Assembly (NCBI GenBank): GCA_903892315.1
Contig: CAITHY010000114.1
Location: 1 to 34,699 of the forward strand
Direction: 5' to 3'
DNA: 34,699 nucleotides
Source of the DNA: an uncultured beta proteobacterium
Lineage (GTDB): Bacteria > Pseudomonadota > Gammaproteobacteria > Burkholderiales > Burkholderiaceae
A program made the position numbers and the translations under genes. Shown one piece after another: positions 16,769 to 34,699 of this stretch; within the stretch, counting starts at the first letter, position 1, and every line of letters begins with the position of its first letter. The notes beneath the pieces are model-generated. The model was not told the origin of the DNA and searched no databases. It saw only the letters and a program-made list of their open reading frames with translations.

Positions 16769-16806
16769 CTGGCTCCATTCAATTGCACGAGACTCATTCA
16801 AATACG

Positions 16807-18155: not shown

Positions 18156-19592
18156 TTAGGCTCTACCGTACTGATCTTCAAATCTGACAATATCGTCTTC
18201 GCCTAAGTAGTCCCCAACCTGCGCCTCAATAATAACCAAAGGTGTATCACCTAAATTGGTCAGCCGATGCTGAGTCTCTTTGGGAATATAAGTGGATTCA
18301 TTGGCATTGAGATGCAAGACTTTGTCGCCGTTAACGATTTCTGCTTTGCCGGTAATAACAACCCAATGCTCATTACGATGGTGGTGCATTTGCAGGGATA
18401 GCTTGCCACCTGGATGCACAACAATTCGTTTGATTTTGTAATCAGGACCTTCTTCGATGACCGTGTAGGTTCCCCATGGGCGATGCACGGTGCTGTGATA
18501 GCTGGCGCGCTCGTCTTGATCCTGATTTAAAGAATCAACCACTTTTTTAACGGATTGGGAATGTCCTTTGGCGCTCACAAGTAAAGCATCTGGAGTATCT
18601 ACGATGATTAAATTGTCTAAGCCTACTGCTGCAATTAAGCGCTCACGACCAAATACAAAGTTGTTTTTTGAATCAACAAAAATCGCTTTTCCTTGAGAGG
18701 CATTACCGTGCTCATCTTCTGGGAAATGTTTTGCCATAGCATCCCATGAGCCCACATCATCCCAGTCAAAGCTAGCATTCACGGAAACAACATTCGGCGC
18801 CTTTTCCATAATCGCGTAATCGAGTGAAATATCTTCGATTGCAGTCATGGTAGTTTTATCTAGTGTGAGCGAGGCAGCGCCATTTTTTCCTTGGGTACTT
18901 GCGCTCCAGCAGCTTTCGACTTGCTTTAATAGATTGGGTGCAATGTCGCCAGCAACTTTAAGCAGGGTGTTCGGGGTAAAACAGAACATCCCAGAGTTCC
19001 AGTGGTAATTGCCTGCAGCTACATATTGTTCGGCCAAGGCAAATGCGGGTTTTTCTACAAACTGTTCAACGATGCGCCCTTCGGCATTACGTGGGGTATG
19101 TGCGGCTTTGCCCAACTTCAGATAGCCATAGCCGATTTCCGCATGCGTAGGCGGAATACCAAAAGTAACTAAATTACCTTCTTGGGCAAAATCAACCGCT
19201 TTGGCAACAGCCATTTCAAAACCAACCTTGTCATGAATGACGTGATCAGCTGGTAATACCAACATCGGAATATCACCGCGTCTAGCATCTTTGGCGGCTA
19301 AGGCAGCAAAGAGTACGGCAGGGGCAGTGTTGCGACGAAGCGGCTCAATGATGGTGAGTTTGGCTGTTTGCTCAGAATTTTTGAGATCCGCCACCACCTG
19401 AAAGCCAAGGCTTTCGGAAGTAACAATACAGAGCCAAGGATTATTGGATTCAATTCGATTGGCAGTTTCACTCAGCAGCGATTGCTTGCTTGCAACCGGC
19501 ATGAAAACCTTAGGGCGGTTCTCACGAGAAACGGGCCACAAACGGGAGCCTGCTCCCCCACAAATAATTACCATCGAAAAGTTCAGATTCAT
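18156..19592 (-). CDS. manC: Mannose-1-phosphate guanylyltransferase / mannose-6-phosphate isomerase
   Basis: Bifunctional type II enzyme giving GDP-mannose. The N-terminal nucleotidyltransferase shows MVIICGGAGSRLWPVSRENR followed by PKVFMPV, and LPADHVIHD. The C-terminal cupin isomerase domain has RPWGTYTVIEEGPDYKIKRI followed by VVHPGGKLSLQMHHHRNEHW with its metal-binding His cluster. From ATG 19592 the length is 478, as usual for ManC/CpsB. The frame is open to a TTG at 19610. It is the last gene of the minus-strand gmd-fcl-manC set, 71 bases after fcl. A phosphomannomutase, needed between the two activities, is not in the window. Confidence 0.95.
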   Translation of the reverse strand: MNLNFSMVIICGGAGSRLWPVSRENRPKVFMPVASKQSLLSETANRIESNNPWLCIVTSESLGFQVVADLKNSEQTAKLTIIEPLRRNTAPAVLFAALAAKDARRGDIPMLVLPADHVIHDKVGFEMAVAKAVDFAQEGNLVTFGIPPTHAEIGYGYLKLGKAAHTPRNAEGRIVEQFVEKPAFALAEQYVAAGNYHWNSGMFCFTPNTLLKVAGDIAPNLLKQVESCWSASTQGKNGAASLTLDKTTMTAIEDISLDYAIMEKAPNVVSVNASFDWDDVGSWDAMAKHFPEDEHGNASQGKAIFVDSKNNFVFGRERLIAAVGLDNLIIVDTPDALLVSAKGHSQSVKKVVDSLNQDQDERASYHSTVHRPWGTYTVIEEGPDYKIKRIVVHPGGKLSLQMHHHRNEHWVVITGKAEIVNGDKVLHLNANESTYIPKETQHRLTNLGDTPLVIIEAQVGDYLGEDDIVRFEDQYGRA

Positions 19593-19663
19593 GGAAGGGA
19601 TTTTACCCAAAGAAAAGAGGTCATATAGCCCCCTAAATGCAATTAATTGCCTTGGATTGGAAT

Positions 19664-20608
19664 TTATTGCTGGAGTTTGGGGGCAATTTGCTCTAAGAAC
19701 CAGTTATAGGCATCTTGGATGCCAGGGCGCAACTCAATTTCAGCTTTCCAGCCCAAACCATTTGCTTTGCTCACGTCAAGCAGTTTTTGTGGGGTGCCAT
19801 CGGGTTTGGAGGTGTCAAATTGCAACTCCCCCTCAAATCCAACAACGGAGACCACTTGCTCTACTAATTCGCGGATCGTAATGTCGTTGCCGCAACCGAT
19901 ATTCACAAATGAGCCATCGTAACCTTGCTCCATGAGCATGACGCAGGCTCTAGCCATATCGTCAACGTGCAAGAACTCACGACGCGGTTTACCAGATCCC
20001 CACACCATTAAATGGGGGTCTTTGCGGAGTTTAGCTTCATGGGCCTTGCGAATGAGCGCAGGCAAAACGTGAGAGTTATTTAAGTCGTAGTTATCGCCAG
20101 GACCATATAAGTTGGTTGGCATGACGCTGACATACTTTGTACCGTATTGGCGGTTGTAGTTTTCGCAAAGCTTAATACCGGCAATTTTGGCGAGCGCATA
20201 AGGCTCATTGGTTTGCTCGAGCGGTCCCGTCAATAAATATTCTTCTTTGATTGGCTGCGGGCAATCTCTTGGATAAATACAGCTCGACCCCAATGACATT
20301 AAGTGATTAATACCAGCTTGATAGGCGCCATGAATGAGGTTGCACTCAATCATTAAATTTTGATAAATGAAGTCAGCGCGATAAATATTGTTCGCCTGAA
20401 TACCGCCCACTTTGGCAGCGGCAATAAAGACGTAGTCAGGCATTTCGGTGGTCAAGAAGTCATGTACTGCTGCTTGATTTAGAAGATCGAGCTCAGCATG
20501 GGTACGAGTAATGACGTTTTCATAGCCGCGGGCTTTGAGTAAACGCGTGATACCACTTCCAACCATGCCACGATGGCCTGCTACATATATTTTTGCTGCT
20601 TTATTCAT
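19664..20608 (-). CDS. fcl: GDP-L-fucose synthase (3,5-epimerase/4-reductase)
   Basis: Converts GDP-4-keto-6-deoxymannose to GDP-L-fucose with NADPH. Short-chain dehydrogenase fold: the coenzyme loop is [17 protein letters not shown], the Ser site is [19 protein letters not shown], and the Tyr-x-x-x-Lys pair is in [38 protein letters not shown] and the [17 protein letters not shown] segment are hallmark blocks. The length of 314 is normal. The start overlaps the 3' end of gmd by 8 bases, so the two are translated as a pair. Together they commit mannose to fucose for the two fucosyltransferases about 8-9 kb away. Confidence 0.96.
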
Positions 20609-21845: not shown

Positions 21846-22991
21846 GTGGCTTTGTCAGAAAAGGCTGAACGCGGCAGAGGGTTCTTGCGCAAGCTGGATC
21901 GCTGGATTGGCGTACCCCTCCTCCTGCTTCTATCTCGTTTCCGCAAGAAAAGAGCAAAACCCCAACAATTTCAGAGTGTTGGGATCTGTGTTTTTGCCGC
22001 CATTGGAGATGCCTTATTGGCCTCCAGCCTCATTGCAGACCTTAAACTAGCCCTCCCGGGCGTCAAAATCACCATTTTTGCTACTCAAGCAAATAAAGTA
22101 GCTTTCGATTTAGTGGAAGGTTATGACGATCTCGTATTGGTGCCCATTACCAAGCCCTTGGCAGCTATTCAGCAGTTGCGAGATCATCCGGTAGATATAT
22201 TGATAGATACGTCCCAATGGTCTCGAATAGGGGCTTTGGTGGCCGGTCTAAGTGGTGCCGGTTGCACTATTGGTTTTGAGACTGAGGGTCAAAAACGTCA
22301 CTATGTCTTTGATTTTGCAGTAAAACACAGCTCAACAGTCCATGAATTGAGTAATTTTGGCGCGCTTTTGGAGCCTTTAGGGATAAAAGCCAATTTCTTG
22401 CCGCCTGTAGCGATTTCACGAATATTAGGGCCAAGTTGCTTAAAAATTAAGCAGCCTTACGTGGTTTTCCATCCCTGGGCTAGTGGCAATCATTTTGAGT
22501 TGAGGGAGTGGCCTCAGACGTGCTGGGTTGAGCTGGCCCAAAAGCTTGCGAATGCTGGATATGGAATTGTGATTAGCGGGGGGCCAAGTGACGAGGGTCG
22601 AGCCAAGGAGCTGTGCGATCAGATTAGCAGGAGTTCGCCTGGTGAGTTGTTGAGCTTGGCTGGCAACGCCAGCCTATTAGATAGCGCTGCCTATCTCCAA
22701 TCGGCAGCTGCAGTGGTTTCCGTGAATACGGGAACGATGCATTTGGCTGCTTTGCTTAGCGCCCCATTGGTCGCTTTGCATGGACCTACCAATCCAGATC
22801 GTTGGGGCCCCAATTACCCAGGCAGCACGGATCAGCATAAAACCATCATCTTGGGGCCTGGTACGCAAGCAGGCGGCGCTTATCTTAATTTGGGATTTGA
22901 GTACCCAGATAACCCCGTCTACCTAATGGACCAGATTTCTGTAGAGGCGGTTATGAATGCTTTACGCAAATTTTCCATAAACATTGCGTAG
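21846..22991 (+). CDS. Glycosyltransferase family 9 (heptosyltransferase-like) protein
   Basis: GT-B enzyme of the ADP-heptose:LPS transferase type, 381 residues. The N-domain has VGICVFAAIGDALLASSLIA (the IGDxL loop) and DILIDTSQWSRIGALVAGLS. The C-domain has PYVVFHPWASGNHFELREWP, GIVISGGPSDEGRAKELCDQ, and VVSVNTGTMHLAALLSAPLV followed by ALHGPTNPDRWGP, the typical GT9 nucleotide-binding block. The start is GTG 21846 with AGGGGTGG upstream. The basic, hydrophobic N-terminus (WIGVPLLLLLSRFRKKRAK) may be a membrane-contact helix. Whether the sugar is heptose or another cannot be told. It is followed by the initiating transferase after 17 bases. Confidence 0.9.
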   Translation: MALSEKAERGRGFLRKLDRWIGVPLLLLLSRFRKKRAKPQQFQSVGICVFAAIGDALLASSLIADLKLALPGVKITIFATQANKVAFDLVEGYDDLVLVPITKPLAAIQQLRDHPVDILIDTSQWSRIGALVAGLSGAGCTIGFETEGQKRHYVFDFAVKHSSTVHELSNFGALLEPLGIKANFLPPVAISRILGPSCLKIKQPYVVFHPWASGNHFELREWPQTCWVELAQKLANAGYGIVISGGPSDEGRAKELCDQISRSSPGELLSLAGNASLLDSAAYLQSAAAVVSVNTGTMHLAALLSAPLVALHGPTNPDRWGPNYPGSTDQHKTIILGPGTQAGGAYLNLGFEYPDNPVYLMDQISVEAVMNALRKFSINIA

Positions 22992-23008: not shown

Positions 23009-24340
23009 ATGGCTGCATCCTATCTAATTAATTCTTACATCATTCGTATTTTTGATTTTGTTGCTATTAACTTAGTGGGTCTTTGCACGTTCTTTGCAAT
23101 TCAGGTTTTCAAGGACCCGGATTTAGATTTGCAGCGTTATGCCTCTTTGATGTTGTTGGCAAGCTTGGCGTATTTATTCTTGACCAATCGAGCGTATCGT
23201 TCTTGGCGGGGCGGCAACTTAATGGCTCTCTTCGGACAAGTTGCTAGTGGCGTTTTAAAAACTTGGATCTTGATATTAATTTGGTTAGTGTTTAGTAAAT
23301 CTACCGAGATGTATTCGCGTCTTTGGTTAGGATCATGGGCACTCATTAGTCTATTTGTTTTGTGTAGCAGTCGATTATTTGCTTATCTCTTAATACGTCG
23401 TTATCGCAGCAAGGGCATCAATCTGCGTCATATTGCGATCGTTGGTTCTGGTGATACTGCTCATGAAATTGAACGCAGAATTCAAGAGTCTGCCTGGTCT
23501 GGATATCGCATACAAACAGTGATGAAAGACTTGGATCCAAATCAACTGGATCAATTGGCAAAACAGTCCTTAAATGAAATTTGGTTGGCTTTGCCGATGG
23601 GTGATGGCTCACAGATGCGAATGGTAATGGAGCATCTCAAAATGAGCACTGCCACTATTCGTTTTGTGCCAGACTGGTTTTCATTTCGGCTGATTAACCA
23701 TGGTGTCAGTGAAGTTTTAGGTATGCAGATGATCGATCTGTATGGCACGCCGATGACGGGAATGAATTTATTCCTGAAATCACTAGAGGATTACTTTATA
23801 GCTAGCTTGATCTTGTTATTCATTAGTCCCCTCCTATTGATTTTGGCGATCGGCGTAAAGCTGAGCTCTCCCGGGCCCATTCTGTATCGCCAGCAGCGGG
23901 TGGGCTGGAACGGTGAGTTATTTGAAATCTATAAATTCAGAACAATGCCAGTGGACCTAGAAGAGGGCGCAGTTGTTTGGGGTGGTTCAGCCAAAAAATC
24001 AGTCACCCCATTCTCCAGGTGGTTGCGTTCTACTAGTCTTGATGAATTGCCTCAATTTTTTAATGTGCTCCAAGGGAAGATGTCGATCGTAGGGCCACGT
24101 CCTGAGCGTCCGATCTTTGTTGAGCAATTCAAAAAAGAGATCCCGGACTATATGAAGAAGCACTTAGTCAAAGCAGGCATTACTGGCTGGGCGCAAATTC
24201 ATGGTTGGCGTGGAGATACAGATCTTCACGCGCGCATTGAGCATGATTTGTACTACATTGAAAATTGGTCTTTGTGGTTAGATCTAAAAATTATCTTCCT
24301 CACCATCTTCCGCGGCTTTGTAAATAAAAACGCGTACTAG
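23009..24340 (+). CDS. Polyprenyl-phosphate hexose-1-phosphate transferase (WcaJ/WbaP type)
   Basis: Starts the repeat unit by moving a sugar-1-phosphate from a nucleotide sugar to undecaprenyl phosphate at the inner membrane. Four N-terminal hydrophobic segments (about residues 10-135) are followed by a Rossmann-like domain with RHIAIVGSGDTAHEIE. A further hydrophobic segment (LILLFISPLLLILAIGVKL) leads into the bacterial sugar transferase domain: SPGPILYRQQRVGWNGELFE, IYKFRTM, STSLDELPQFFNVLQGKMSI, VGPRPERPIF and KAGITGWAQIHGWRGDT. The length of 443 fits the WcaJ group, where glucose-1-phosphate is common, but the sugar is not proven. Its TAG stop overlaps the stop of the convergent ligase gene. 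Confidence 0.93.
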   Translation: MAASYLINSYIIRIFDFVAINLVGLCTFFAIQVFKDPDLDLQRYASLMLLASLAYLFLTNRAYRSWRGGNLMALFGQVASGVLKTWILILIWLVFSKSTEMYSRLWLGSWALISLFVLCSSRLFAYLLIRRYRSKGINLRHIAIVGSGDTAHEIERRIQESAWSGYRIQTVMKDLDPNQLDQLAKQSLNEIWLALPMGDGSQMRMVMEHLKMSTATIRFVPDWFSFRLINHGVSEVLGMQMIDLYGTPMTGMNLFLKSLEDYFIASLILLFISPLLLILAIGVKLSSPGPILYRQQRVGWNGELFEIYKFRTMPVDLEEGAVVWGGSAKKSVTPFSRWLRSTSLDELPQFFNVLQGKMSIVGPRPERPIFVEQFKKEIPDYMKKHLVKAGITGWAQIHGWRGDTDLHARIEHDLYYIENWSLWLDLKIIFLTIFRGFVNKNAY

Positions 24341-25698
24341 TTTTTCTTTTTTAGCACCATGGTATTGAGTAGTGCAATACAGAAAAACAAAATCTCAATG
24401 GTATGTTTGCTGCTGACTTCAGCAAAAGTAAAGATTAGTAAAATACCACTAGCTATCCAAATGGCTGTTAATCGTTGGGGAGATTGCGATTTTGCGGCAA
24501 TGACGATGATGGAGATTAATGCCCCAATCGTGAAAATTAAACCTGGTAAACCAAATGCAAGGCCGTAATCAATCCAGGCGCTGTGGGCGGATTGAATAAC
24601 TGCCTCTGGATAGGATTTGCGAATGAGTTTGCCCAAAGAGTGCTCTAACAGCCCATAGCCAAGGGGATTTGCAGCAATCGTTTCTATACCGGCCGTTGCC
24701 CAAGCAGCCCGTTCATAGTTGTTTGGATATACCGACTCTCCCGAATTGGTGCGGGGGTACCCATATTTCTTAACATCCTGCCAGTTTGGCACTTCTTTAA
24801 TTTGAACAGCAACGCTCACATCATCGATGAAGTGATTCCAACCACGATTAATGCTTAAGTGCTGCTGTACAAAAATGATTCCAATTAAAAGAGGAATAAA
24901 TAGCAGGATGCTAGATTTCCAATTGCGCTCTCGTTCGGCTCGTTGACGTTTCAGAATTAAGTTTCCAACATAAAGCACCCATGAACCAATCAATATCAGT
25001 GCGATACCAATCCCATTGCGTGTATCAATGATGGTGGTAAAGCTAAATAGAATGGTCAAAGTTCCCAATAGCCAAAAGAGATATATTCCCCGGGGCAGCT
25101 TAATTTCTTTTTGCCTTAGGGCATCAGCAGTACAGCCACAGATTGCACCAATAAAAAGGTTGCCCATCATCACGGTATTAATTTTGTTGCCAAAAGGACT
25201 GGAGAAGTAATAGTTAGGCATGAAGACTAGACCGGACTGACTGTATGCCCCTAGGTAGTGGATCAACAAGTAAATAAAGCTAGAAAGTAGTCCAGCCCAC
25301 AAAAACTGACTTCGAATGGGCTGGTCGCGCAATATGAGTCCAGAAGCTGCGCCGATGATGGTGGCTAGAAGGACTCTCAACCAAGTGCTGGTCAACTCCT
25401 GCGACTGGAGTGCAAACTCTTGGCTAAATCCAATGTAATGAATCAGCACCCAGATAAACATACAGCCGGAAAGAATTGCTGGTGTAAATTGAGAAAGGCG
25501 CCCTAAAGAGAGCGCTTTTCTAGAGTCTTTTGGGTAATTTATGAGAAATAAGAGGCCGGCGATAGTGCCAAGTGCCAAAAGGCTATTGCGCAAGGCAATC
25601 GTATTTTTGATAGACCAAATAGCAAGCAAGGTGCTGCTAATGAGAATCAGAAGTACGCTCAAAACAGGTAAAGAGCGGTTTGAGCCGGTGGGTTTCAT
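24337..25698 (-). CDS. O-antigen ligase / polymerase superfamily membrane protein (WaaL/Wzy-like)
   Basis: A 453-residue multi-span membrane protein with about ten to twelve hydrophobic segments and one large loop after the segment near residue 270. The loop holds NRGWNHFIDDVSVAVQIKEV and WATAGIETIAANPLGYGLLE, and the region ends SAHSAWIDYGLAFGLPGLIF. This matches the Wzy_C/O-antigen ligase family, in which a loop His (here HSAWID) is functionally important. WaaL joins O-antigen to lipid A core, Wzy polymerises repeat units and PglL-type enzymes glycosylate proteins; sequence alone does not separate them. It converges on the initiating transferase gene with stop codons sharing the four bases CTAG. 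Confidence 0.85.
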   Translation of the reverse strand: MKPTGSNRSLPVLSVLLILISSTLLAIWSIKNTIALRNSLLALGTIAGLLFLINYPKDSRKALSLGRLSQFTPAILSGCMFIWVLIHYIGFSQEFALQSQELTSTWLRVLLATIIGAASGLILRDQPIRSQFLWAGLLSSFIYLLIHYLGAYSQSGLVFMPNYYFSSPFGNKINTVMMGNLFIGAICGCTADALRQKEIKLPRGIYLFWLLGTLTILFSFTTIIDTRNGIGIALILIGSWVLYVGNLILKRQRAERERNWKSSILLFIPLLIGIIFVQQHLSINRGWNHFIDDVSVAVQIKEVPNWQDVKKYGYPRTNSGESVYPNNYERAAWATAGIETIAANPLGYGLLEHSLGKLIRKSYPEAVIQSAHSAWIDYGLAFGLPGLIFTIGALISIIVIAAKSQSPQRLTAIWIASGILLIFTFAEVSSKHTIEILFFCIALLNTMVLKKKN

Positions 25699-25832: not shown

Positions 25833-26843
25833 ATGATTCTTTTAACGGGTGCAACGGGTTACATTGGCTCCCATACATGGCTGGAGTTATTGCTAGCTGG
25901 CTATCAAGTGCTTGGCGTGGATAATTTCGCTAACTCTAGCCCAAAGGCATTGACGCGTCTCGAATCGCTCTCAGGTCAAAAATTAGAATTTATTCAGGGC
26001 GATGTTTGTGATCCTGCATTCTTGGAGTCAGTATTTCAGTCGCATTCAATTAAAGGGGTTGTTCACTTTGCAGCCTTAAAAGCAGTCGGCGAATCTTCGT
26101 CTAATCCATTGCGCTATTACGAGAATAATTTAGGCGGATTAATTACCCTCTTGCAAATCATGCGAGCACATGATTGCCGCAATTTTGTTTTTAGTTCATC
26201 TGCTTGTGTATATGGTGATCCCGATGAGAGCCCTGTTAAAGAGAATGCCGCCTTAAGACCTGAAAATCCTTATGGTCAAACGAAGTTTATGAGCGAGCAA
26301 ATATTGCGTGATCTTGAAAAATCAGACCCCCATTGGCGTGTTGCGTATTTGCGGTATTTCAATCCTATTGGTGCGCATGAGTCTGGCTTGATTGGAGAAG
26401 ATCCAATGGGTATTCCGAATAACCTATCTCCTTTAGTTGCGCGAGTGGCCTCTGGAAGGATGGAGGAGTTGAAGGTATACGGCAATGATTGGGAGACTCC
26501 AGACGGGACTGGTGTGAGAGATTACATTCATGTGGTTGATTTAGCTCGCGGTCACGTCAAAGCAATTGATTATTTGTTATCGGGAAAACCTTCATTAACC
26601 GTGAATCTTGGGACGGGGGTGGGGTATAGCGTAATGGATGTCATTCGCGCTTACGAAGAGGTAATTGGGCGCCCAATTAGGTATCAGGTGACCGATCGTC
26701 GGCCTGGAGATGTAGCGCTTTACTACGCCGACCCCTCTCTGGCAGAGGCACTCTTGGGCTGGCGTGCTGAACGTAGCTTAAAACAAATGTGTGCCGATAG
26801 TTGGCGTTGGCAATCACAAAACCCAATGGGTTACGAATCCTAG
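25833..26843 (+). CDS. galE: UDP-glucose 4-epimerase
   Basis: Interconverts UDP-glucose and UDP-galactose (or the N-acetyl forms in some members) with tightly bound NAD. The coenzyme loop is LLTGATGYIGSHTWLELLLA. VVHFAALKAVGESSSNPLRY, the Ser site SSSACVYGDPDESP, the Tyr-x-x-x-Lys pair in NPYGQTKFMSEQIL, and LRYFNPIGAHESGLIGEDP are classic GalE blocks. The usual SSSATVYG appears with Cys in place of Thr; the neighbouring Ser may serve the same role, but this is worth noting. It is 336 residues long. The TAG stop directly abuts the ATG of the next gene, suggesting translational coupling. Confidence 0.95.
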   Translation: MILLTGATGYIGSHTWLELLLAGYQVLGVDNFANSSPKALTRLESLSGQKLEFIQGDVCDPAFLESVFQSHSIKGVVHFAALKAVGESSSNPLRYYENNLGGLITLLQIMRAHDCRNFVFSSSACVYGDPDESPVKENAALRPENPYGQTKFMSEQILRDLEKSDPHWRVAYLRYFNPIGAHESGLIGEDPMGIPNNLSPLVARVASGRMEELKVYGNDWETPDGTGVRDYIHVVDLARGHVKAIDYLLSGKPSLTVNLGTGVGYSVMDVIRAYEEVIGRPIRYQVTDRRPGDVALYYADPSLAEALLGWRAERSLKQMCADSWRWQSQNPMGYES

Positions 26844-27749
26844 ATGGCCGTTGACTTCGTTCTCTACTGTAAGTCTTATCGTAAAGATCTGCTGCGAGTT
26901 AAGCGTCTATTAGATTCTTTGCGTCGACACAATATTGAGTCGATTCCTTTTTATATATCTACTCCCGAGTCTGACCATGAGGAGTTGATTGAGTTGCTTG
27001 GAGAAGGCAATGATTATCAATGGATTTCGGATGAATCGATTGTGCGCGCCAACCCTCGCGCTCCTCAGGATATTCAATGCACTAAACCTGGCGGCATCGC
27101 GCAGCAAGTCATTAAATCTGAGTTTTGGCGTTTGGGTCTTTCCCAAAACTATTTATGCATTGATTCAGACAGTGTTTTTATTCGCGACTTCACAAAATCT
27201 GATTTTCTTGCTCCCGATGGAAATCCCTATACCGTTCTTCATCAAAATAAAGAATTTTTTCAGCTGGCGAGTAATCGTGGCCATTTGAGGGTAGAGCGTG
27301 ATTTACGTATTGAGGCAGAAACAGTAAAAGCCTTATTTGGCAGAGTCGGTCCAAATTACTATTGCGCGCCTGCCCCATTTATATGGTCGGCCAAGGTATG
27401 GGAATCTCTGGATCGCAATTATCTGCAACCCAGAGGGATAACTTTGTGGGACCTAATTACCCCTGAACACCCAGAGAGTTTGGTTTACGGAGAGACACTG
27501 TTGGCTTATCAGGCGATCCCAGTTCGGACGATTGAACCCTTGTTCCGTATTTATCATTACGATTGGCAATACTATTTAGCGCGTCGCTTTGGGGAAACAG
27601 AAGCTAAACTTCGCGAGAACTTTATTGGCGTCATTTATCAGTCAGCCTGGGAAGCGGAGATGGATTTTGGTGCTCCAACCAAATCTTTGCCGTCTAGACT
27701 GTTGCGAAAAGCAAAGCGCTTTCTCCGTTTATTGCAAAGCTATCTCTAA
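26844..27749 (+). CDS. DUF6492-like putative glycosyltransferase
   Basis: A 301-residue protein I recognise only as resembling the DUF6492 group. It opens VDFVLYCKSYRKDLLRVKRL, like a GT-A fold, and has a DxD-type motif CIDSDSVFIRDF (D107-S-D109), the likely metal and nucleotide-sugar site. ALFGRVGPNYYCAPAPFIWS and LVYGETLLAYQAIP are conserved-looking later blocks. The C-terminus is a short basic helix (RLLRKAKRFLRLLQSYL) that could touch the membrane. It is flanked without gaps by galE (stop abuts start) and a GT2 gene (one-base overlap), so a role in adding a galactose-type sugar is a reasonable guess, not shown. Confidence 0.6.
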   Translation: MAVDFVLYCKSYRKDLLRVKRLLDSLRRHNIESIPFYISTPESDHEELIELLGEGNDYQWISDESIVRANPRAPQDIQCTKPGGIAQQVIKSEFWRLGLSQNYLCIDSDSVFIRDFTKSDFLAPDGNPYTVLHQNKEFFQLASNRGHLRVERDLRIEAETVKALFGRVGPNYYCAPAPFIWSAKVWESLDRNYLQPRGITLWDLITPEHPESLVYGETLLAYQAIPVRTIEPLFRIYHYDWQYYLARRFGETEAKLRENFIGVIYQSAWEAEMDFGAPTKSLPSRLLRKAKRFLRLLQSYL

Positions 27750-28696
27750 TGAATAATATGATTGCTGACGAAGGCATGCCTTTGGTCACTGTTTCCATGC
27801 CTGCTTTTAATTCTGAGCGCTATATTGCTGAAGCAATCGAAAGTATTTTGGCTCAAACGTATCAAAATTTTGAGTTAATTATTGTTGATGATGGCTCCAC
27901 AGATCGGACTCGCGAGATTATCGAGGGCTTCACGGATCCCCGCATTATTAAGATTTATTCTGACCAGAACCGAGGGCTAATTACGACCCGCAATCGGATT
28001 GCTCAGTTGGCTAAAGGTAAATACCTTGCTTTGTTAGATGCTGATGACCTAGCATTCCCAGAGAGGCTTGCTTTACAAGTTGCTTTTTTGGAGGCTAATC
28101 ATGCGGATTTGTGTGGTGCCGACCATTGGACCTTAAATCAGGTGACTGGCCAACTCAAGTCCTCAAAGCAGAGGCACGCCAATGCAGATATTCATGCCTT
28201 ATTGAGCGTATGTAGCCCCGTTTGCAACCCTGCAATGATGGGGCGTTTAGAAATTTTTAGACGCTTTCCCTATAAAGCTTCTTATTTGCATGCTGAAGAT
28301 TATTGCTTGTGGACAGAAATCGCTCTTGCAGGCTATCGGTTTGCCAACATTAAAAAGAAGTTAATTACCTATCGATTGCATTCGACCCAGACGAGTGTTA
28401 ACCATCTTCAAGCCGCACGAAATGTATTTTCAGGAGCGCAGGCTAGCTATTTAAAGGGGCTGCACATTCCGCAAGATTGTTTGCCGCGAGCACTTCCTTT
28501 TTTTGAGCGCTTGAAATATGGTGTCAAATTTATGGTGCTGATGAATAAAAAGATTTCTAGAATCTCTATTCGGACTAATCAAGAGCTGTATGCACGCTTC
28601 CAATTTCGTGGCAATGGAATATTGACGCCATTTACCCGTTTAGAGCGCTTAGTAATTGCCGCTACTGCCAGCTTAGTTGGCAGGTTTAACGGCTAA
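27749..28696 (+). CDS. Glycosyltransferase family 2 protein
   Basis: GT-A inverting transferase. The N-terminal domain is canonical: PLVTVSMPAFNSERYIAEAI, ESILAQTYQNFELIIVDDGS followed by TDRTREI, and a DADD metal site (residues 97-100) in KYLALLDADDLAFPERL. A later AEDYCLWTEIALAGYRFANI block holds the probable catalytic acidic pair (ED). The C-terminus has no long membrane helix. It is 315 residues long. Its ATG overlaps the stop of the preceding gene (TAATG). The stop faces the GT11 gene with only five bases between. The sugar is unknown. Confidence 0.93.
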   Translation: MNNMIADEGMPLVTVSMPAFNSERYIAEAIESILAQTYQNFELIIVDDGSTDRTREIIEGFTDPRIIKIYSDQNRGLITTRNRIAQLAKGKYLALLDADDLAFPERLALQVAFLEANHADLCGADHWTLNQVTGQLKSSKQRHANADIHALLSVCSPVCNPAMMGRLEIFRRFPYKASYLHAEDYCLWTEIALAGYRFANIKKKLITYRLHSTQTSVNHLQAARNVFSGAQASYLKGLHIPQDCLPRALPFFERLKYGVKFMVLMNKKISRISIRTNQELYARFQFRGNGILTPFTRLERLVIAATASLVGRFNG

Positions 28697-28701
28697 TTAG
28701 A

Positions 28702-29595
28702 TCATTCAATGGCAACTTTATTCCATTGAGCAGGCAGTAGGTTGGATAGATCAAGATGTTGATCATTAATCCAGCGATTCGGTGCGAATACCAATCCGCC
28801 TGTGTCTTGCTTCAGCCAAGCCCCCCACCAGCTTAAAGAGCTGTTCGCGATAATATGATGTTTGCAAGCAAACATCAGTTGTAGTTCCTGTGCAGCCGCA
28901 TCAGCTGAAGAAGTATGTTCAATATAAGTCTTTTGCGCACTGGCCCCGAGAGCCTCTTTAGCCCATGCTAAATCATCAGAAAAAATGAAAAAATGGGCAT
29001 GAGGCTTGGCTACTAATAAGTGTTGAATAGCAGTCTGGTAATAATCAATTGGTAAGGTGCCGTGGTATTGGGCTGCTGCAGGGGAGTGGACATAATCACC
29101 TCTACGAATATGCACCATGACAGACTCAGAAGAATGTATTTGTTGTAAATAATCTTGATATGAGGCTGCAATGGCGCTTCTAGTTTTAAATTCTTCCTTT
29201 AATTGCTCTCGTATAGCTTCAATGTAGGGGAAAGCCTGCCAATACCCAGAAAGATAAAGATCTCTAGTGGAGATATTTTTTAACCTCAATAACCTTGGAT
29301 CAAAATCAAATGCATTTCGCTGATACATCACTAGCGACTGTGTTGGTAGAAATGGTTGCAGAATACGGGAAATTTTGCCGAGCTTTTTAGGGAAGACTTC
29401 GCCCGTAAACGGAATATCTTGAATATTTAAAAGACTTAATTGCAGTTCTCGGGGGGTCGCGTTACCCTGTGGCGCATCAAACCAGCTACGGTTTAAGGTA
29501 AATGCCGTCTGATAGCGCTCTGAAAGAGCTCTAGCAATCGCATATTGAAACATTTGATTGCCGAGCCCCCCTTGAAGGTAGGAATAAATGGCCAT
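28702..29595 (-). CDS. Glycosyltransferase family 11 fucosyltransferase (alpha-1,2-type)
   Basis: GT11 enzyme, 297 residues. The N-terminus YLQGGLGNQMFQYAIARALS is the family hallmark. The GDP-fucose motif VHIRRGDYVH lies at residues 161-170, as in alpha-1,2-fucosyltransferases (FutC, WbsJ, mammalian FUT1/2). Further blocks are FFIFSDDLAWAKEAL and IIANSSLSWWGAWL. Family members move L-fucose from GDP-fucose to galactose, usually at O-2; the acceptor here is not known. It lies divergent to the GT10 gene, leaving about 72 bases between starts. It needs the gmd/fcl/manC products made by the same locus. Confidence 0.93.
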   Translation of the reverse strand: MAIYSYLQGGLGNQMFQYAIARALSERYQTAFTLNRSWFDAPQGNATPRELQLSLLNIQDIPFTGEVFPKKLGKISRILQPFLPTQSLVMYQRNAFDFDPRLLRLKNISTRDLYLSGYWQAFPYIEAIREQLKEEFKTRSAIAASYQDYLQQIHSSESVMVHIRRGDYVHSPAAAQYHGTLPIDYYQTAIQHLLVAKPHAHFFIFSDDLAWAKEALGASAQKTYIEHTSSADAAAQELQLMFACKHHIIANSSLSWWGAWLKQDTGGLVFAPNRWINDQHLDLSNLLPAQWNKVAIE

Positions 29596-29600
29596 AACCC

Positions 29601-29606
29601 TATAAT
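29601..29606 (+). promoter_or_regulatory. Possible -10 element (TATAAT) ahead of the GT10 gene
   Basis: A perfect TATAAT lies 62 bases upstream of the chosen GT10 ATG (29668), in the gap between the divergent fucosyltransferase genes. I see no good -35 at 16-18 bases, so it would need an activator or be a chance match in AT-rich DNA. Confidence 0.3.
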
Positions 29607-29667
29607 TAGACCATTACTACGAGCAAAAAACTCATTCCAGCGCTTAACCTTAAATGAATGGCTGTCT

Positions 29668-30744
29668 ATGTTAGTTGGAGGGATTGTCGGATGGGGGGAG
29701 GGTCACGATGACATCTTTAACCCCCATAGCCCTAGAAATCGCGATAACTGTCTTGAACCTTTTCGGGTTTTGCGCGCGCAGGCACAAGCTCGCGATATTC
29801 AGTTGCATACTCTAGATACTCTCTCTGATAGAGGCATTTCGCCCAATTTCAATCTTTATATTGAATCGCTGCCGATTATTCCGATTGAAGGTTGTAAAAA
29901 TTACCTCGTACGATTTGAAACTGAGTTAACGGTGCCAGTGAATGGTGATTCAAGTTATCTGAAGCAATTTGATGGCATATTTACCTGGGATTTGGATCTT
30001 CTAGACCCCAATTCAAAAAGTACCTTGTCGCAAGAGCTGAAAGAAGTTCCAAAATTTCCTATTGCTTATCCGAATGTATTGCCTACTGACTTTAAGCTTA
30101 ATGCGATTGTGAATTCTGGTTTTGCTAATCGCGATTTATTTTGCGTATTGATTGGTAGCAATCGCCATGCCAATGTATTGGACTCTCGAGAGCTCTATTC
30201 GGAAAGAGTGAAGGCCATACGCTGGCTTGAATCTCATGCCCCCAATGATTTTTCTTTATTTGGCAATGGCTGGCGCGTTCCACCAAAGCGTTTAGGCAGT
30301 ATCGGCAAGCTTCAATACCGATTCGAAAAAATTATGCCCTTTGTAACCAGAAGACCGGTTTTCCCTAGTTACCAAGGCCCAGCGAATACGAAGTTTGAAG
30401 TGTATTCTCGGTCGAAATTCAGTATTTGTTTTGAAAATGCTAGAGACATTCGTGGTTACATTACCGAGAAAATATTTGACTGTTTGTTCGCTGGTTGTGT
30501 ACCGATTTACTGGGGAGATCCAGCTGTTGAAGCGTTGATACCTACGACCTGCTTTATTGATTTCAGGGAATTCCAGAATCAATCTGACCCCTATGGGGAG
30601 CTGTATAGTTACATCAAGAATATGAGTGAAGTAACTTTTCTGGAGTATCAACAAGCAGGTAGAGATTTTTTAAGTTCGCCCAGTTTTGCTCCATTTACTT
30701 CTGAAGCATTCGCACAGTCTATTTTGAGGCCAATTGAATCATGA
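29668..30744 (+). CDS. Glycosyltransferase family 10 fucosyltransferase (alpha-1,3/1,4-type)
   Basis: GT10 enzyme of 358 residues from ATG 29668. The family's strongest block is intact: [20 protein letters not shown] followed by [20 protein letters not shown] (from residue 251). The Glu and Lys of FEN...TEK contact GDP-fucose in known structures. The N-terminal half ([14 protein letters not shown] to [11 protein letters not shown]) is the variable acceptor domain. The frame stays open upstream to a TTG at 29545, inside the divergent GT11 gene, so the extension is rejected. H. pylori and mammalian relatives build Lewis x/a-type linkages. No heptad-repeat tail of the H. pylori kind is seen. It overlaps rfbB by four bases (ATGA). 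Confidence 0.92.
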
Positions 30745-31799
30745 TTTTAGTTACTGGGGGCGCAGGTTTTATTGGGGGTAACTTTGTTTTGGACTGGTTA
30801 GCCAATCCAAAAGCAGAAGAGATTATTAATCTTGATAAATTGACCTATGCCGGTAATTTGGCCACACTAGCATCTCTTGAGAATGACCCTAGACATATTT
30901 TTGTTCATGGCGATATCGGTGACCGCGGATTGGTTGAGAGCCTCTTGCAAAAATATCAACCCCGAGCGATTGTTAATTTTGCTGCTGAAAGTCATGTTGA
31001 TCGCTCAATACACGGTCCCGCTGATTTTGTCCAAACGAATGTTTTGGGAACATTTCATTTACTGGAAAGTGCTCGAGCTTATTGGAGTTCCTTGCCGCAG
31101 GACCAAAAATCATCTTTTCGGTTTTTGCATGTTTCCACCGATGAAGTGTACGGATCACTAAAAGCAGAGGATCCGCCTTTCAGTGAAACCAATACCTATG
31201 AACCGAATAGCCCCTACTCGGCCTCCAAAGCAGCTTCTGATCACTTGGTTCGAGCCTGGTTTCATACTTATGGACTGCCTGTATTAACGACGAATTGCTC
31301 AAACAATTACGGCCCCTACCATTTTCCAGAAAAGCTGATACCGCTCGTCATTTTGAATGCATTGAATGGTAAGCCGTTGCCAGTCTATGGCGATGGTCAG
31401 CAAATTCGTGACTGGCTTTATGTGTCAGATCATTGCTCAGCTATACGTCGTGTATTGGAGCGCGGTCAGATAGGCGAAACTTATAACATTGGTGGCTGGA
31501 ATGAAAAAGCCAACCTCGATGTTGTCAATACCATTTGTACGGTGCTTGATTCCTTAAAGCCACGCGCTGACCATCAGTCCTATTCTCAGCAAATTACTTT
31601 TGTAACTGACCGTCCGGGGCATGATCGTCGCTATGCAATCGATGCAAGAAAAATAGAACGAGAGTTGGATTGGAAGCCGCAAGAAACATTTGATACTGGC
31701 ATACGTAAAACGGTGCAATGGTATCTTGATAACCCTGTCTGGATAGAAGGGGTTGTGAGTGGCTCGTATCGCGACTGGTTAAACAAGCATTACAGCTAA
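30741..31799 (+). CDS. rfbB: dTDP-glucose 4,6-dehydratase
   Basis: Second step of dTDP-L-rhamnose synthesis. The NAD loop is [19 protein letters not shown], followed by [20 protein letters not shown], the catalytic Thr-Asp-Glu in [11 protein letters not shown], and the Tyr-x-x-x-Lys pair in [17 protein letters not shown]. Also typical is [20 protein letters not shown]. It is 352 residues long. Its ATG overlaps the GT10 stop, tying fucosyltransferase and rhamnose genes into one transcript. The next gene, rfbD, starts 56 bases later. Confidence 0.97.
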
Positions 31800-31855
31800 T
31801 ATGCTGCTGAGCCCATCTCCATTCATACCCTCGCTTTCACATCATTTATCTCCCT

Positions 31856-32812
31856 ATGCACATTCTTGTTTTCGGTAAAGATGGTCAGCTAGGAAAAGCA
31901 TTCCAAAAGCGATTTTTAGAAAGCGCAGAGAAATCGCACGATATGGCGGTTCAATATGTTGGCCGAGCAGACTGTGATCTGACTGATGCGAACGCTCTTG
32001 CCAATCTATTAAAACAAGCCAAGCCTGATCTCATCATCAATGCCGCAGCCTATACAGCTGTTGATAGGGCGGAGAGTGAACCTGAGTTAGCAAAAGCGAT
32101 AAATACTATCGCCCCTGAGTTGATGGCTCAATATGCGGCAGATCATGGCGCAACCCTGTTGCACTTCTCGACTGACTATGTATTTGATGGAAGCAAATCA
32201 GGTTCTTATATTGAGGAGGATTTACGTAATCCGCTTGGTCAATACGGCAAGAGTAAAGCTGAGGGTGAGCAGGCTATTGAAAGAATTTTTCAGGGTGCAT
32301 CAAAAGGCCGGTACGCCATTTTGCGCACCAGTTGGGTGTATGGTGATGGCGGCAATTTCATTAAAACGATTTTGCGTTTGGCGAAAGAGAGAGAAACACT
32401 TGGGGTTATTCAGGATCAATGGGGTGTGCCCACCGCAGCTGACTGGCTTGCTGCTGTAAGTCTAGATTTAATACTGGATGCGCAATGGCAATTATGCAAA
32501 TTTACTTCCGGCATTTATCACGCAGTTCCACCAGGTGAGACTAATTGGTATGAATTGGCTCGCTTGGCAATTGGCACAGCGCTTGAGGCCGGATCCCCGC
32601 TCAAAATTGATCTTGCGAATATCAAACCCATTCAGGCGGTGGACTATCCATTGCCAGCCTCTAGACCCATGAATTCCCGAATGTCTTCAAAGAAATTACA
32701 GGAAGCCATCGCCAGGAGTGTTGATGTGTCAAAATTGCAGCGATGGAACTTGCCTTGGGCTGATCAGGTTCGATCTTATGTGCAAGAGCTGGTTAAAAAG
32801 CAGATTATTTAA
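31856..32812 (+). CDS. rfbD: dTDP-4-dehydrorhamnose reductase
   Basis: Last step of dTDP-L-rhamnose synthesis, reducing dTDP-4-keto-L-rhamnose with NAD(P)H. The opening ILVFGKDGQLGKAFQKRF is the family coenzyme loop. DLIINAAAYTAVDRAESEPE, HFSTDYVFDGSKSG, NPLGQYGKSKAEGEQAI (Tyr/Lys pair) and ILRTSWVYGDGGNFIKTILR are all standard blocks. It is 318 residues long, slightly above E. coli RfbD (299). No good ribosome binding site precedes the ATG at 31856. Confidence 0.96.
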   Translation: MHILVFGKDGQLGKAFQKRFLESAEKSHDMAVQYVGRADCDLTDANALANLLKQAKPDLIINAAAYTAVDRAESEPELAKAINTIAPELMAQYAADHGATLLHFSTDYVFDGSKSGSYIEEDLRNPLGQYGKSKAEGEQAIERIFQGASKGRYAILRTSWVYGDGGNFIKTILRLAKERETLGVIQDQWGVPTAADWLAAVSLDLILDAQWQLCKFTSGIYHAVPPGETNWYELARLAIGTALEAGSPLKIDLANIKPIQAVDYPLPASRPMNSRMSSKKLQEAIARSVDVSKLQRWNLPWADQVRSYVQELVKKQII

Positions 32813-32825
32813 AGGGTGAGTGGAT

Positions 32826-33719
32826 ATGGGGCTTAAGCGAAAAGGCATTATCTTGGCTGGCGGCTCAGGAACACGCCTATACCCTGTCACTCAGGCAGTC
32901 TCCAAGCAGTTAATGCCGGTGTATGACAAGCCTATGGTGTACTACCCTTTAACTACATTAATGTTGGCGGGAATTCGTGACATCTTACTGATCTCTACCC
33001 CTCATGACACCCCGCGTTTTTCTGAACTACTGGGCGATGGATCCCAATGGGGTCTCAATATTGAATATTGCGTTCAACCATCTCCTGATGGTTTGGCACA
33101 GGCATTTACTTTGGGCAAATCTTTCATCGGCAATCATCCCAGTGCTTTAGTACTTGGAGATAATATTTTTTACGGCCATGAGTTAGTAAATCATCTTCAA
33201 AGTGGTGACCAACGTAAAAAAGGGGCAACCGTTTTCGCCTATCATGTTACTGATCCAGAGCGTTATGGTGTGGTGGAGTTCGATCAGAATGCTAAAGCAC
33301 TCTCTATTGAAGAAAAGCCATCAAAGCCGAGAAGTAGTTATGCGGTGACTGGCTTATATTTTTATGACAATCAAGTGTGTGATATCGCAGCTTCGATTAA
33401 GCCCAGCGCTCGCGGGGAGCTTGAAATCACGGACGTCAATCGTTTTTATCTCGAAAGAGACGAGTTAAACGTAGAGATGATGGGTCGAGGCTTTGCATGG
33501 CTTGATACGGGGACGCATGATTCATTGCTGGATGCTGCAGGCTTTATCGCTACACTCCAAAAGCGTCAAGGCCTTATGGTGGCTTGTCCTGAAGAGATCG
33601 CCTACCGACAGGGTTGGATTACTGCCGATACTGTGCAAAAGGTGGCCGCTCAACTAAGCAAGAATAGTTATGGGCAGTATCTGAATAAGATTTTGCAAGA
33701 ACTCAATCGCTCTTATTAG
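32826..33719 (+). CDS. rfbA: Glucose-1-phosphate thymidylyltransferase
   Basis: First step of dTDP-L-rhamnose synthesis, joining dTTP and glucose-1-phosphate. The nucleotide loop is [20 protein letters not shown], followed by [29 protein letters not shown], and [20 protein letters not shown]. The allosteric RmlA family length is kept (297 residues from 32826). The frame opens at GTG 32820, but ATG 32826 sits about ten bases after AGGG, a better fit. The gap to rfbD is 13 bases. Confidence 0.96.
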
Positions 33720-33759
33720 TCTTCATTCATAACACTACATTACCCAAGCAAAGCCTAAC

Positions 33760-34335
33760 GTGTCTAATCCTACTGCAACGAGTAAGTTAAAGGTTGAAAC
33801 TACTGCCATACATGATGTATTGGTGATAGAGCCCAAGGTATTTGGCGATGAGCGTGGCTGGTTTACTGAGTCCTTCAATGCCTTGGATTTCTCACAAGCA
33901 ACTGGCTTATCGGTTGATTTTGTACAGGATAACCACTCGTTTTCGAGACAATGGACATTACGGGGGATGCACTTTCAACAAGAGCATGCTCAAGGTAAGT
34001 TGGTGCGTGTCGTTGCGGGAGCGGTCTTTGATGCTGTGGTGGATCTTCGTAAAACATCTCCGACTTTCGGTAAGTGGGCAGGGGTTGAATTGAGTGCCCA
34101 AAATCACCGGCAGCTATGGATTCCACCGGGTTTGGCGCATGGATTTCTAGTGCTATCTGAAACTGCTGAGTTCTTATATAAAACGACTGATTACTACTAT
34201 CCCCAAAGCGAGGTTTGCTTAGCATGGAATGACCCTAGTGTTGCGATTGATTGGCCCTTGCCTCCAGGTGTATTACCGAATGTGAATGCTAAGGATGCAG
34301 CAGGGCTATCTTGGGATGCTGTTCCCAAGTTTTAG
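33760..34335 (+). CDS. rfbC: dTDP-4-dehydrorhamnose 3,5-epimerase
   Basis: Cupin-fold epimerase, third step of dTDP-L-rhamnose synthesis. Typical blocks: VLVIEPKVFGDERGWFTESF, FVQDNHSFSRQWTLRGMHFQ with the catalytic His, QGKLVRVVAGAVFDAVVDLR, and WIPPGLAHGFLVLSETAEFL then YKTTDYYYP. The length of 191 matches (185 in E. coli). The start is GTG 33760, the only plausible start codon before the conserved domain. The gene order rfbB-D-A-C puts rfbC last. Confidence 0.95.
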   Translation: MSNPTATSKLKVETTAIHDVLVIEPKVFGDERGWFTESFNALDFSQATGLSVDFVQDNHSFSRQWTLRGMHFQQEHAQGKLVRVVAGAVFDAVVDLRKTSPTFGKWAGVELSAQNHRQLWIPPGLAHGFLVLSETAEFLYKTTDYYYPQSEVCLAWNDPSVAIDWPLPPGVLPNVNAKDAAGLSWDAVPKF

Positions 34336-34364
34336 TTGGGCCTCAAACAGGCGATAATCCGTCC

Positions 34365-34699
34365 ATGAGCATTTCCTCGCCCTCATCTCTAAATCTAGAT
34401 CGTCCAAAAGTATTGTTGGTCAAGCTTTCTTCATTAGGGGATGTGCTGCACAATCTGCCGATTGGTTGGGATTTACGAGCACGTTTACCTGATGCTCAAA
34501 TTGATTGGGTGGTCGAAGAAGGGTATGTTCACTTACTCGAACCTTTGCTCACAAAGCCTGGCTTTCGCGGCATTGATCGCATTATTCCGTTTGGTTTGCG
34601 TCGCTGGAAAAAAGAGTTATTGAATCTCAGCACTTGGCGAGAATTTTTTGCATTTAAATCACAGTTACAAGAAGTCTCATACGATGTTGTGATTGAAAC
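34365..34699 (+). CDS. waaC: Lipopolysaccharide heptosyltransferase I, N-terminal part (cut by window edge)
   Basis: 111 complete codons of a GT9 enzyme running off the right edge. After a short Ser-rich lead, KVLLVKLSSLGDVLHNLPIG is the WaaC/RfaC signature (E. coli has KTSSMGDVLHTLPA), followed by IDWVVEEGYVHLLEP and FRGIDRIIPFGLRRWKKELL. WaaC adds the first heptose to Kdo in the LPS inner core, using ADP-heptose. It follows rfbC after 29 bases. It suggests an LPS-core locus continues beyond the window and that at least part of the polysaccharide here ends on LPS. Confidence 0.92.
   Translation, partial: MSISSPSSLNLDRPKVLLVKLSSLGDVLHNLPIGWDLRARLPDAQIDWVVEEGYVHLLEPLLTKPGFRGIDRIIPFGLRRWKKELLNLSTWREFFAFKSQLQEVSYDVVIE

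What the first reader, a model, noticed from the sequence alone, without database searches (positions are those of the whole stretch)
28702..30744. Divergent pair of fucosyltransferases from two families (GT11 and GT10): a possible Lewis/blood-group-like glycan in a freshwater bacterium
Seen: GGLGNQMFQYA and HIRRGDY in one protein, and FEN...[20 protein letters not shown] in its neighbour, encoded back to back. Known: GT11 members are mostly alpha-1,2-fucosyltransferases and GT10 members alpha-1,3/1,4; together they make H/Lewis b/y-type structures in H. pylori and animals. Inference: this organism decorates its surface polysaccharide with two differently linked fucoses. In a planktonic bacterium host mimicry is not an obvious reason; phage evasion, grazing defence or adhesion to algae are alternatives.
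Basis: partly seen in the sequence, partly recalled or inferred. Interest (0 to 1): 0.72.

Follow-up and report, generated by a model that had tools for sequence, protein, structure and literature searches.

The report
Swappable fucose-adding genes in lake bacteria
A lake bacterium carries two neighbouring genes for enzymes that probably attach the sugar fucose to its outer coat, and in related species this gene set is repeatedly exchanged for other sets at the same chromosomal place, which may change what the cell surface looks like.

Summary
Confirmed: 28702-29595 (-) is an intact GT11 and 29668-30744 (+) an intact GT10 fucosyltransferase gene, divergent, 72 bp between start codons (GT10 starts at 29668, not at the upstream TTG). 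The window is Polynucleobacter; GDP-fucose genes lie in the same locus.

The surroundings say more. The pair lies between pyrB and waaC (LPS heptosyltransferase I), where GT4-DUF6492-[cassette]-rmlB is in order in 104 of 115 fetched Polynucleobacter intervals. 73 of 115 carry GT10 and/or GT11. Three GT10 lineages never share an interval; each is one clade on the GT10 tree, yet the cassette classes need 39 changes on a 79-row core tree. GT10 and GT11 diverge together (r 0.80) and only weakly with the core (0.19, 0.31). 72 of 92 GT10/GT11 genes run against the frame.

Best reading: fucosyltransferases of a horizontally exchanged LPS core/oligosaccharide cassette; a polymerised O-unit is the main rival. 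Two differently linked fucoses are plausible, but linkage is untested (a GT11 enzyme with alpha-1,3 activity exists), and a Lewis b/y-like product is not specifically supported. Both enzyme families and surface replacement islands are known; I found no paper describing this cassette in the searches made.

The parts
28702..29595 (-). GT11 fucosyltransferase (297 aa)
29668..30744 (+). GT10 fucosyltransferase (358 aa)
29596..29667 (.). 72-base gap between the divergent start codons; no sigma-70-like match in it
27749..28696 (+). GT2 glycosyltransferase of the same cassette
   Evidence: PF00535 124.5 bits; in 19 of 19 class-A intervals
26844..27749 (+). DUF6492 protein, part of the constant frame
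   Evidence: PF20102 34.3 bits; in 104 of 115 intervals
25833..26843 (+). galE-like UDP-glucose 4-epimerase
   Evidence: ORF, homologues; name from recall, not scanned
24337..25698 (-). Wzy_C-family polymerase or ligase
   Evidence: PF04932 38.1 bits, cut-off 31.7
23009..24340 (+). WcaJ-type undecaprenyl-phosphate glucose phosphotransferase
   Evidence: TIGR03023 454.5 bits, cut-off 410.75
21846..22991 (+). GT9 glycosyltransferase
   Evidence: PF01075 90.2 bits
20601..21692 (-). gmd, GDP-mannose 4,6-dehydratase
   Evidence: TIGR01472 600.4 bits, cut-off 415
19664..20608 (-). fcl, GDP-L-fucose synthase
   Evidence: NF047922 489.8 bits, just below its cut-off of 500
18156..19610 (-). manC-type mannose-1-phosphate guanylyltransferase / mannose-6-phosphate isomerase
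   Evidence: TIGR01479 521.4 bits, cut-off 372.95
16783..18135 (+). GT4-like protein, first gene of the constant frame
   Evidence: PF13579 25.8 bits, below cut-off 29.7; in 104 of 115 intervals
15809..16768 (+). pyrB (name from recall), left flank of the interval
   Evidence: its protein matches in 162 of 186 congeneric genomes
30741..34335 (+). rmlB, rmlD, rmlA, rmlC (dTDP-L-rhamnose); only rmlB was scanned, the other names are from recall
   Evidence: rmlB TIGR01181 504.3 bits, cut-off 365.1; homologues of rmlB, rmlD, rmlC in 115 and of rmlA in 112 of 115 intervals
34311..34699 (+). 5' part of waaC, LPS heptosyltransferase I, right flank (listed from the first TTG; the profile match begins about residue 33)
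   Evidence: window part 92.7 bits to TIGR02193; full homologue in L001 306 bits, cut-off 185.3

Best explanation
The two genes encode working GDP-L-fucose-dependent fucosyltransferases, one GT11 and one GT10. They add terminal or branching L-fucose to a lipopolysaccharide oligosaccharide (outer core, or a short O-unit) made by the enzymes of the pyrB-waaC locus. Shown: enzyme families, intact and constrained genes, co-location with GDP-fucose and dTDP-rhamnose synthesis and with heptosyltransferase I, a constant frame around an exchangeable cassette, and, by trees, a history of the cassette unlike that of neighbouring core genes, GT10 and GT11 travelling together. Inferred: that the enzymes are active; that the glycan is LPS core/oligosaccharide rather than polymer or capsule; that GT11 makes an alpha-1,2 and GT10 an alpha-1,3/4 bond; that exchange is selected because it changes what phages or grazers recognise.
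For: Families and fold. Columns E256, N257, Y264, E267 and K268 are the same in 68 of 68 GT10s of the locus, window included. Constraint against L001: dN/dS 0.09 (GT11), 0.25 (GT10). GDP-fucose genes. Location: pyrB and waaC co-oriented in 118 of 118 genomes where both listed matches lie on one contig within 60 kb, median gap 9.9 kb; GT4-DUF6492-rmlB in order in 104 of 115 and 665 of 665 frame genes forward; waaC named by TIGR02193. Core rather than polymer: 12 of 19 class-A intervals have no WcaJ/WbaP-type initiator, no Wzy_C-cluster protein and no fcl in the interval; in 3 of 5 searched genomes of other than window type (G017, G018, G025) a PF01943 flippase lies within 5 kb of fcl, outside this interval. 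Exchange: 39 class changes on the core tree of 79 rows, least possible 8, shuffled mean 49.2, against 3 of a possible 3 on the GT10 tree; Mantel r GT10-GT11 0.80, GT10-DUF6492 0.87, GT10-core 0.19, GT11-core 0.31.
Against: No chemistry. In window-type loci a WcaJ initiator and a Wzy_C protein sit in the same interval (7 of 19 class-A intervals), which fits an undecaprenyl-linked unit better than plain core sugars. 13 of 114 genomes with GT10 or GT11 lack an fcl match. G020 and G022 gave no PF01943 match. The core tree uses genes next to the locus, which may themselves recombine, and was a short search. Classes are less scattered than random over all (0 of 200 shuffles as low), so inheritance is partly vertical; GT4 follows the core moderately (r 0.47).
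Confidence: 0.66

Rival explanations
1. The pair decorates a Wzy-polymerised O-antigen or capsule repeat unit started by the WcaJ enzyme of the window, not the LPS core.
For: WcaJ above its cut-off and a Wzy_C protein in the same interval; the same block in 7 of 19 class-A intervals.
Against: 12 of 19 class-A intervals keep GT2-GT11-GT10 with no initiator and no Wzy_C-cluster protein. PF01943 matches in 0 of 5 window-type genomes (G001, G002, G004, G008, G010), and PF13440 gives one weak 523-aa match in each, probably MurJ. ABC exporters and other flippase families were not searched.
Confidence: 0.27
2. True Lewis b/y or H-type determinants (host-like mimicry).
For: GT10 with GT11 type enzymes make Lewis y/b in H. 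pylori (PMC12342981, passages read). A sister cassette (class C) pairs GT25 with GT10, reminiscent of Lewis x assembly (GT25 for HP0826 is recalled).
Against: No evidence of a Gal-beta-GlcNAc acceptor in this cassette. The GT2 matches many solved GT2 enzymes, chondroitin synthase best (E 3.1e-25) and a GalT1 next (1.9e-15), so its sugar is open. Family membership does not fix the linkage. Homopolymer tracts in 20 gene pairs are at most 8 bases.
Confidence: 0.08
3. The enzymes add fucose to residues other than Gal/GlcNAc, for example rhamnose, heptose or fucose, so that neither linkage follows the family rule.
For: Rhamnose genes are part of the frame (rmlB, rmlD, rmlC homologues in 115 of 115 intervals). 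HhFT2 shows that GT11 linkage varies (PMC4202792). The N-terminal half of this GT10 is not matched by Pfam.
Against: No direct evidence for such acceptors.
Confidence: 0.3
4. The mosaic distribution reflects ancestral polymorphism and differential loss, not exchange between species.
For: Classes A, B and E are less scattered than random, C slightly (32 of 500 shuffles as low).
Against: Classes A, B and C need 12 changes each on the core tree (10-11 forced by starred branches) while each GT10 lineage is one clade; GT10 identity barely follows core identity; none of 118 intervals holds two GT10s.
Confidence: 0.1

Closest known systems
H. pylori FutA/FutB (GT10) with FutC (GT11), Lewis antigen LPS
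   Same: Same two families; LPS oligosaccharide fucosylation; GT10 here matches the H. pylori structure 2nzw
   Different: There the genes have separate locus numbers (HP0379, HP0651, HP0093/0094) and switch by homopolymer slippage (PMC12342981, passages read); here they are adjacent, divergent, inside an exchanged cassette, without long homopolymers; acceptor unknown
E. coli O-antigen alpha-1,2-fucosyltransferases WbsJ, WbwK, WbiQ (GT11)
   Same: Family GT11, HxRRxD motif (PMC4202792, section 18 read)
   Different: No sequence comparison made (one search found no record); no GT10 partner known to me; different locus
Replacement genomic islands of aquatic bacteria, including the CSC (cell surface composition) island of Polynucleobacter asymbioticus
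   Same: Same place, different surface-glycan genes, exchange between lineages (PMC5644125 and PMC4033161, passages read)
   Different: The passages read name no fucosyltransferases; whether CSC is this pyrB-waaC interval could not be checked (PMC5244307 not held). Here the pattern spans species and concerns defined GT10/GT11 lineages
Fucosyltransferase-producing bacteria isolated from marine samples (Kajiwara 2012)
   Same: Fucosyltransferase activity in bacteria from environmental samples (PMC4103564, part 1 of 3 read)
   Different: Activity in lysates; no gene or locus in the part read

Membership tests
CAZy GT11 (28702-29595) | PF01531 above its curated cut-off | tested here: met
   107.8 bits against 23.9
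CAZy GT11 (28702-29595) | HxRRxD donor motif | tested here: met
   HIRRGD in the window; 26 of 26 GT11s of the locus
CAZy GT11 (28702-29595) | GT-B fold shared with alpha-1,2/1,6/O-fucosyltransferases | tested here: met
CAZy GT11 (28702-29595) | alpha-1,2 linkage | not testable with these tools
   needs enzyme assay; HhFT2 in GT11 is alpha-1,3 (PMC4202792)
CAZy GT10 (29668-30744) | PF00852 above its curated cut-off | tested here: met
   42.7 bits against 23.9; only profile positions 49-125 of 182 are matched
CAZy GT10 (29668-30744) | alpha-1,3-FucT signature FEN..Y.TEK..P.YWG (motif recalled) | tested here: met
   aligned with 2nzw over it; E256, N257, Y264, E267, K268 in 68 of 68
CAZy GT10 (29668-30744) | fold of H. 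pylori FucT / FUT9 | tested here: met
CAZy GT10 (29668-30744) | alpha-1,3/1,4 linkage | not testable with these tools
   needs enzyme assay
Lewis/blood-group glycan system | enzymes for a Gal-beta-GlcNAc backbone beside the fucosyltransferases | tested here: inconclusive
   GT2 of unknown specificity in the window; GT25 in class C
Lewis/blood-group glycan system | phase-variable homopolymers in the fucosyltransferase genes (as in H. pylori) | tested here: not met
   longest runs 5-8 bases in 20 pairs
Wzx/Wzy-dependent O-antigen locus | Wzx flippase in the locus | tested here: inconclusive
   none among the 10 window proteins given; PF01943 in 0 of 5 window-type genomes; other exporters not searched
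Wzx/Wzy-dependent O-antigen locus | undecaprenyl-phosphate sugar phosphotransferase | tested here: met
   TIGR03023; in 7 of 19 class-A intervals
Replacement genomic island | same place, conserved flanks, different genes of like function | tested here: met
Replacement genomic island | history unlike that of the core genome | tested here: met
   core sampled by six genes upstream of the locus
Replacement genomic island | SNP peaks in the flanks or identical islands in divergent strains | not tested
   one genome per species was available

The most novel reading that the evidence does not exclude
Across the freshwater genus Polynucleobacter one LPS locus behaves like a blood-group locus: three deeply separated GT10 lineages and one GT11 family act as alternative versions of a cassette between DUF6492 and rmlBDAC, mostly encoded against the direction of the rest of the locus, and are traded between species so that the fucosylation pattern of the surface, not the core genome, decides which phages or grazers recognise a cell.
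Probability: 0.33. Interest if true: 0.68.

Novelty: new member of a known kind. Interest (0 to 1): 0.5.

Why it matters
Polynucleobacter is a common freshwater bacterioplankton genus (recalled). A fixed locus with a few recurrent fucosyltransferase cassettes would give a readable 'serotype' for a free-living genus and a natural experiment: neighbouring species with different cassettes on similar backgrounds can be compared for phage adsorption, grazing and LPS chemistry. The enzymes are also candidate fucosyltransferases from outside the gut.

Tried and rejected
Phase variation by homopolymers: not seen (longest 8 bases in 20 pairs). A sigma-70-like promoter in the 72-base gap: no match (one match in 28600-30900, at 28677-28705, against 5.2 expected). 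A solved GT11 homologue by sequence: none meaningful (none; two SH3 chains at E 0.66). NCBIfam names for GT10, GT11, DUF6492 and the Wzy_C protein: none. Base composition: GT10 42.1%, GT11 43.0% GC against 45.5% for the window, a small difference not pressed. E. coli O127 yardstick for GT11: no such record in the collection. A tree with biochemically characterised enzymes was therefore not built; placement rests on Pfam, PDB profile and fold matches. Uniqueness to Polynucleobacter was rejected: 7 of 41 more distant GT10 loci (L026-L066) also have a GT11 match in the fetched DNA (L032, L034, L042, L043, L050, L053, L059). Literature: 'Polynucleobacter' with 'fucosyltransferase' 0 papers; with 'O-antigen' 6, none on point by title; with 'genomic island' and 'glycosyltransferase' 5; three of four terms on LPS and flexible genome 48, 20 listed; with 'cell surface', 'glycosyltransferase', 'replacement' 1, unrelated. 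Fucosyltransferase searches: 2; 4; 4. Only open-licence papers are held. The third protein search was not used.

Rows dropped and limits: of 186 genomes pyrB matched in 162 and waaC in 164, and both place lists were cut short by the tool, so the 118 intervals with both on one contig within 60 kb are a lower bound. Three intervals over 20 kb (G022, G124, G131) were not fetched, leaving 115. ORFs of at least 120 aa were chosen greedily and clustered by BLAST, so short or displaced genes can be missed. The core tree took 78 of the 115 by quota (all of A, B, D, F, X; 15 of 28 C, 8 of 21 E, 3 of 7 G, 3 of 10 H) plus the window; five rows have only 30% of columns, G011 has a long branch. D, F, G and H labels are as scattered as chance there (500 of 500 shuffles as low). 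In the GT10 tree G024 and G117 are long branches and the class-A clade has support 89. The wider GT10 tree took 39 of 41 outside loci (length filter) and 8 A plus the window, 7 B, 8 C; how A and B relate to the outsiders is not resolved. The divergent count of 31 includes G121, whose genes lie 3.3 kb apart and outside this interval. The 25 of 25 is ascertained by a class-A GT10 query.

Full report
WHAT IS THERE. The minus-strand ORF 28702-29595 is a complete GT11 protein (PF01531, 107.8 bits) and the plus-strand ORF ending at 30744 a complete GT10 protein (PF00852, 42.4 bits). The GT10 start is corrected to 29668: the upstream TTG at 29545 lies inside GT11, 24 of the 30 best hits have 358 aa, and M1 is nearly invariant among 17 aligned sequences. 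The start codons are 72 bp apart, GT11 converges on the GT2 gene, and GT10 overlaps rmlB by four bases. Against L001 (Polynucleobacter sp. AP-Kaivos-20-H2, the closest named locus) both genes are constrained: dN/dS 0.09 for GT11, 0.25 for GT10.

WHERE THEY SIT. In 118 of 118 genus genomes with listed matches of both on one contig within 60 kb, pyrB and waaC are co-oriented, a median 9.9 kb apart. waaC is LPS heptosyltransferase I (TIGR02193, 306 bits). I fetched 115 of these intervals, called ORFs, clustered them and annotated the larger clusters. GT4-like, DUF6492 and rmlB occur in this order in 104 of 115; rmlB, rmlD and rmlC homologues are in 115 and rmlA in 112; all 665 of these frame genes point the same way. 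Between DUF6492 and rmlB lies a cassette. Class A (19 intervals, and the window): GT2, GT11 reversed, GT10 forward. Class B (19): GT2, mostly a reversed unknown protein, GT10 reversed. Class C (28): GT25 and a distant GT10 (the member scanned has a FucT_N domain), reversed. Class D (6): GT2, GT11 reversed, another gene. Others (43): E 21, F 4, G 7, H 10, X 1. None of the 118 intervals has two GT10s. Of 92 GT10/GT11 genes in cassettes 72 run against the frame; I have no explanation for this bias.

EXCHANGE. On a tree of 79 rows from six genes upstream of the locus, the nine classes need 39 changes (least possible 8, shuffled mean 49.2, 0 of 200 shuffles as low); classes A, B and C need 12 each. 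On the GT10 tree the same three classes are one clade each (support 89, 98, 100), and with 39 outside relatives samples of A, B and C stay separate clades, C on a very long branch. Among 20 class-A loci, window included, GT10 identity follows GT11 (Mantel r 0.80) and DUF6492 (0.87) but scarcely the core (0.19; GT11-core 0.31). The window, G001, G018 and G019 are core neighbours of class A, yet the GT10s of L018 and L019 (which lie in G018 and G019) are 55% identical to the window's while that of L001 is 86%. The pair is thus one version of a travelling cassette. Exchange of surface islands is already described for Polynucleobacter asymbioticus (island CSC; PMC5644125, passages read) and for aquatic bacteria generally (PMC4033161, passages read); whether CSC is this interval could not be checked.

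WHICH GLYCAN? 12 of 19 class-A intervals contain no WcaJ/WbaP-type initiator, Wzy_C-cluster protein or fcl. Of five searched genomes of other than window type, three (G017, G018, G025) have a PF01943 flippase within 5 kb of fcl, 34-44 kb from the nearer end of the pyrB-waaC interval; G020 and G022 gave no match. That, and the place before waaC, favours an LPS outer-core oligosaccharide. The window type (7 of 19) adds manC-fcl-gmd-GT9-WcaJ-Wzy_C-galE to the interval; PF01943 matched in 0 of the 5 window-type genomes searched. A Wzy-dependent unit remains the main rival.

GENERALITY. Genus-wide, 99 of 186 genomes have GT10, 63 GT11, 48 both; 31 have a divergent pair with under 6 kb between the matched domains, 30 of them under 1.2 kb. 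Outside the genus 7 of 41 GT10 loci also have a GT11 in the fetched DNA, so co-location is not unique. Bacteria from marine samples with fucosyltransferase activity have been reported (PMC4103564, part 1 of 3 read).

VERDICT. The stronger result is an LPS cassette position holding recurrent, mutually exclusive fucosyltransferase lineages across a planktonic genus.

Noticed in passing
L087:2673-5443 and 27 other class-C intervals: A GT25 gene with a reversed GT10 in 28 of 115 Polynucleobacter intervals; in the member scanned the GT10 has a FucT_N domain and its closest PDB match is H. pylori FucT (E 3.7e-17). It is the more Lewis x-like arrangement in the genus.
   Followed up: partly
cassettes between DUF6492 and rmlB in 115 intervals: GT10/GT11 genes are encoded against the locus direction in 72 of 92 cases, while 665 of 665 frame genes are forward. 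No explanation found.
   Followed up: no
L092:5903-6934 (class B, 15 of 19 intervals): A 343-aa reversed gene beside GT10 with no Pfam or NCBIfam match above cut-off; possibly an undescribed glycosyltransferase.
   Followed up: no
L027, L047, L048: GT10 relatives (36-38% identity) in methanogenic archaea; L027 also has gmd (63%) and an fcl-like epimerase (33%) in the fetched DNA.
   Followed up: no
   Followed up: no
G004:C39:16190-16840, G008:C1:575336-575875: Second GT11 genes about 13-17 kb from a 720-722-aa Wzy_C protein (possibly a protein O-oligosaccharyltransferase), suggesting a second fucosylated glycan locus.
   Followed up: no
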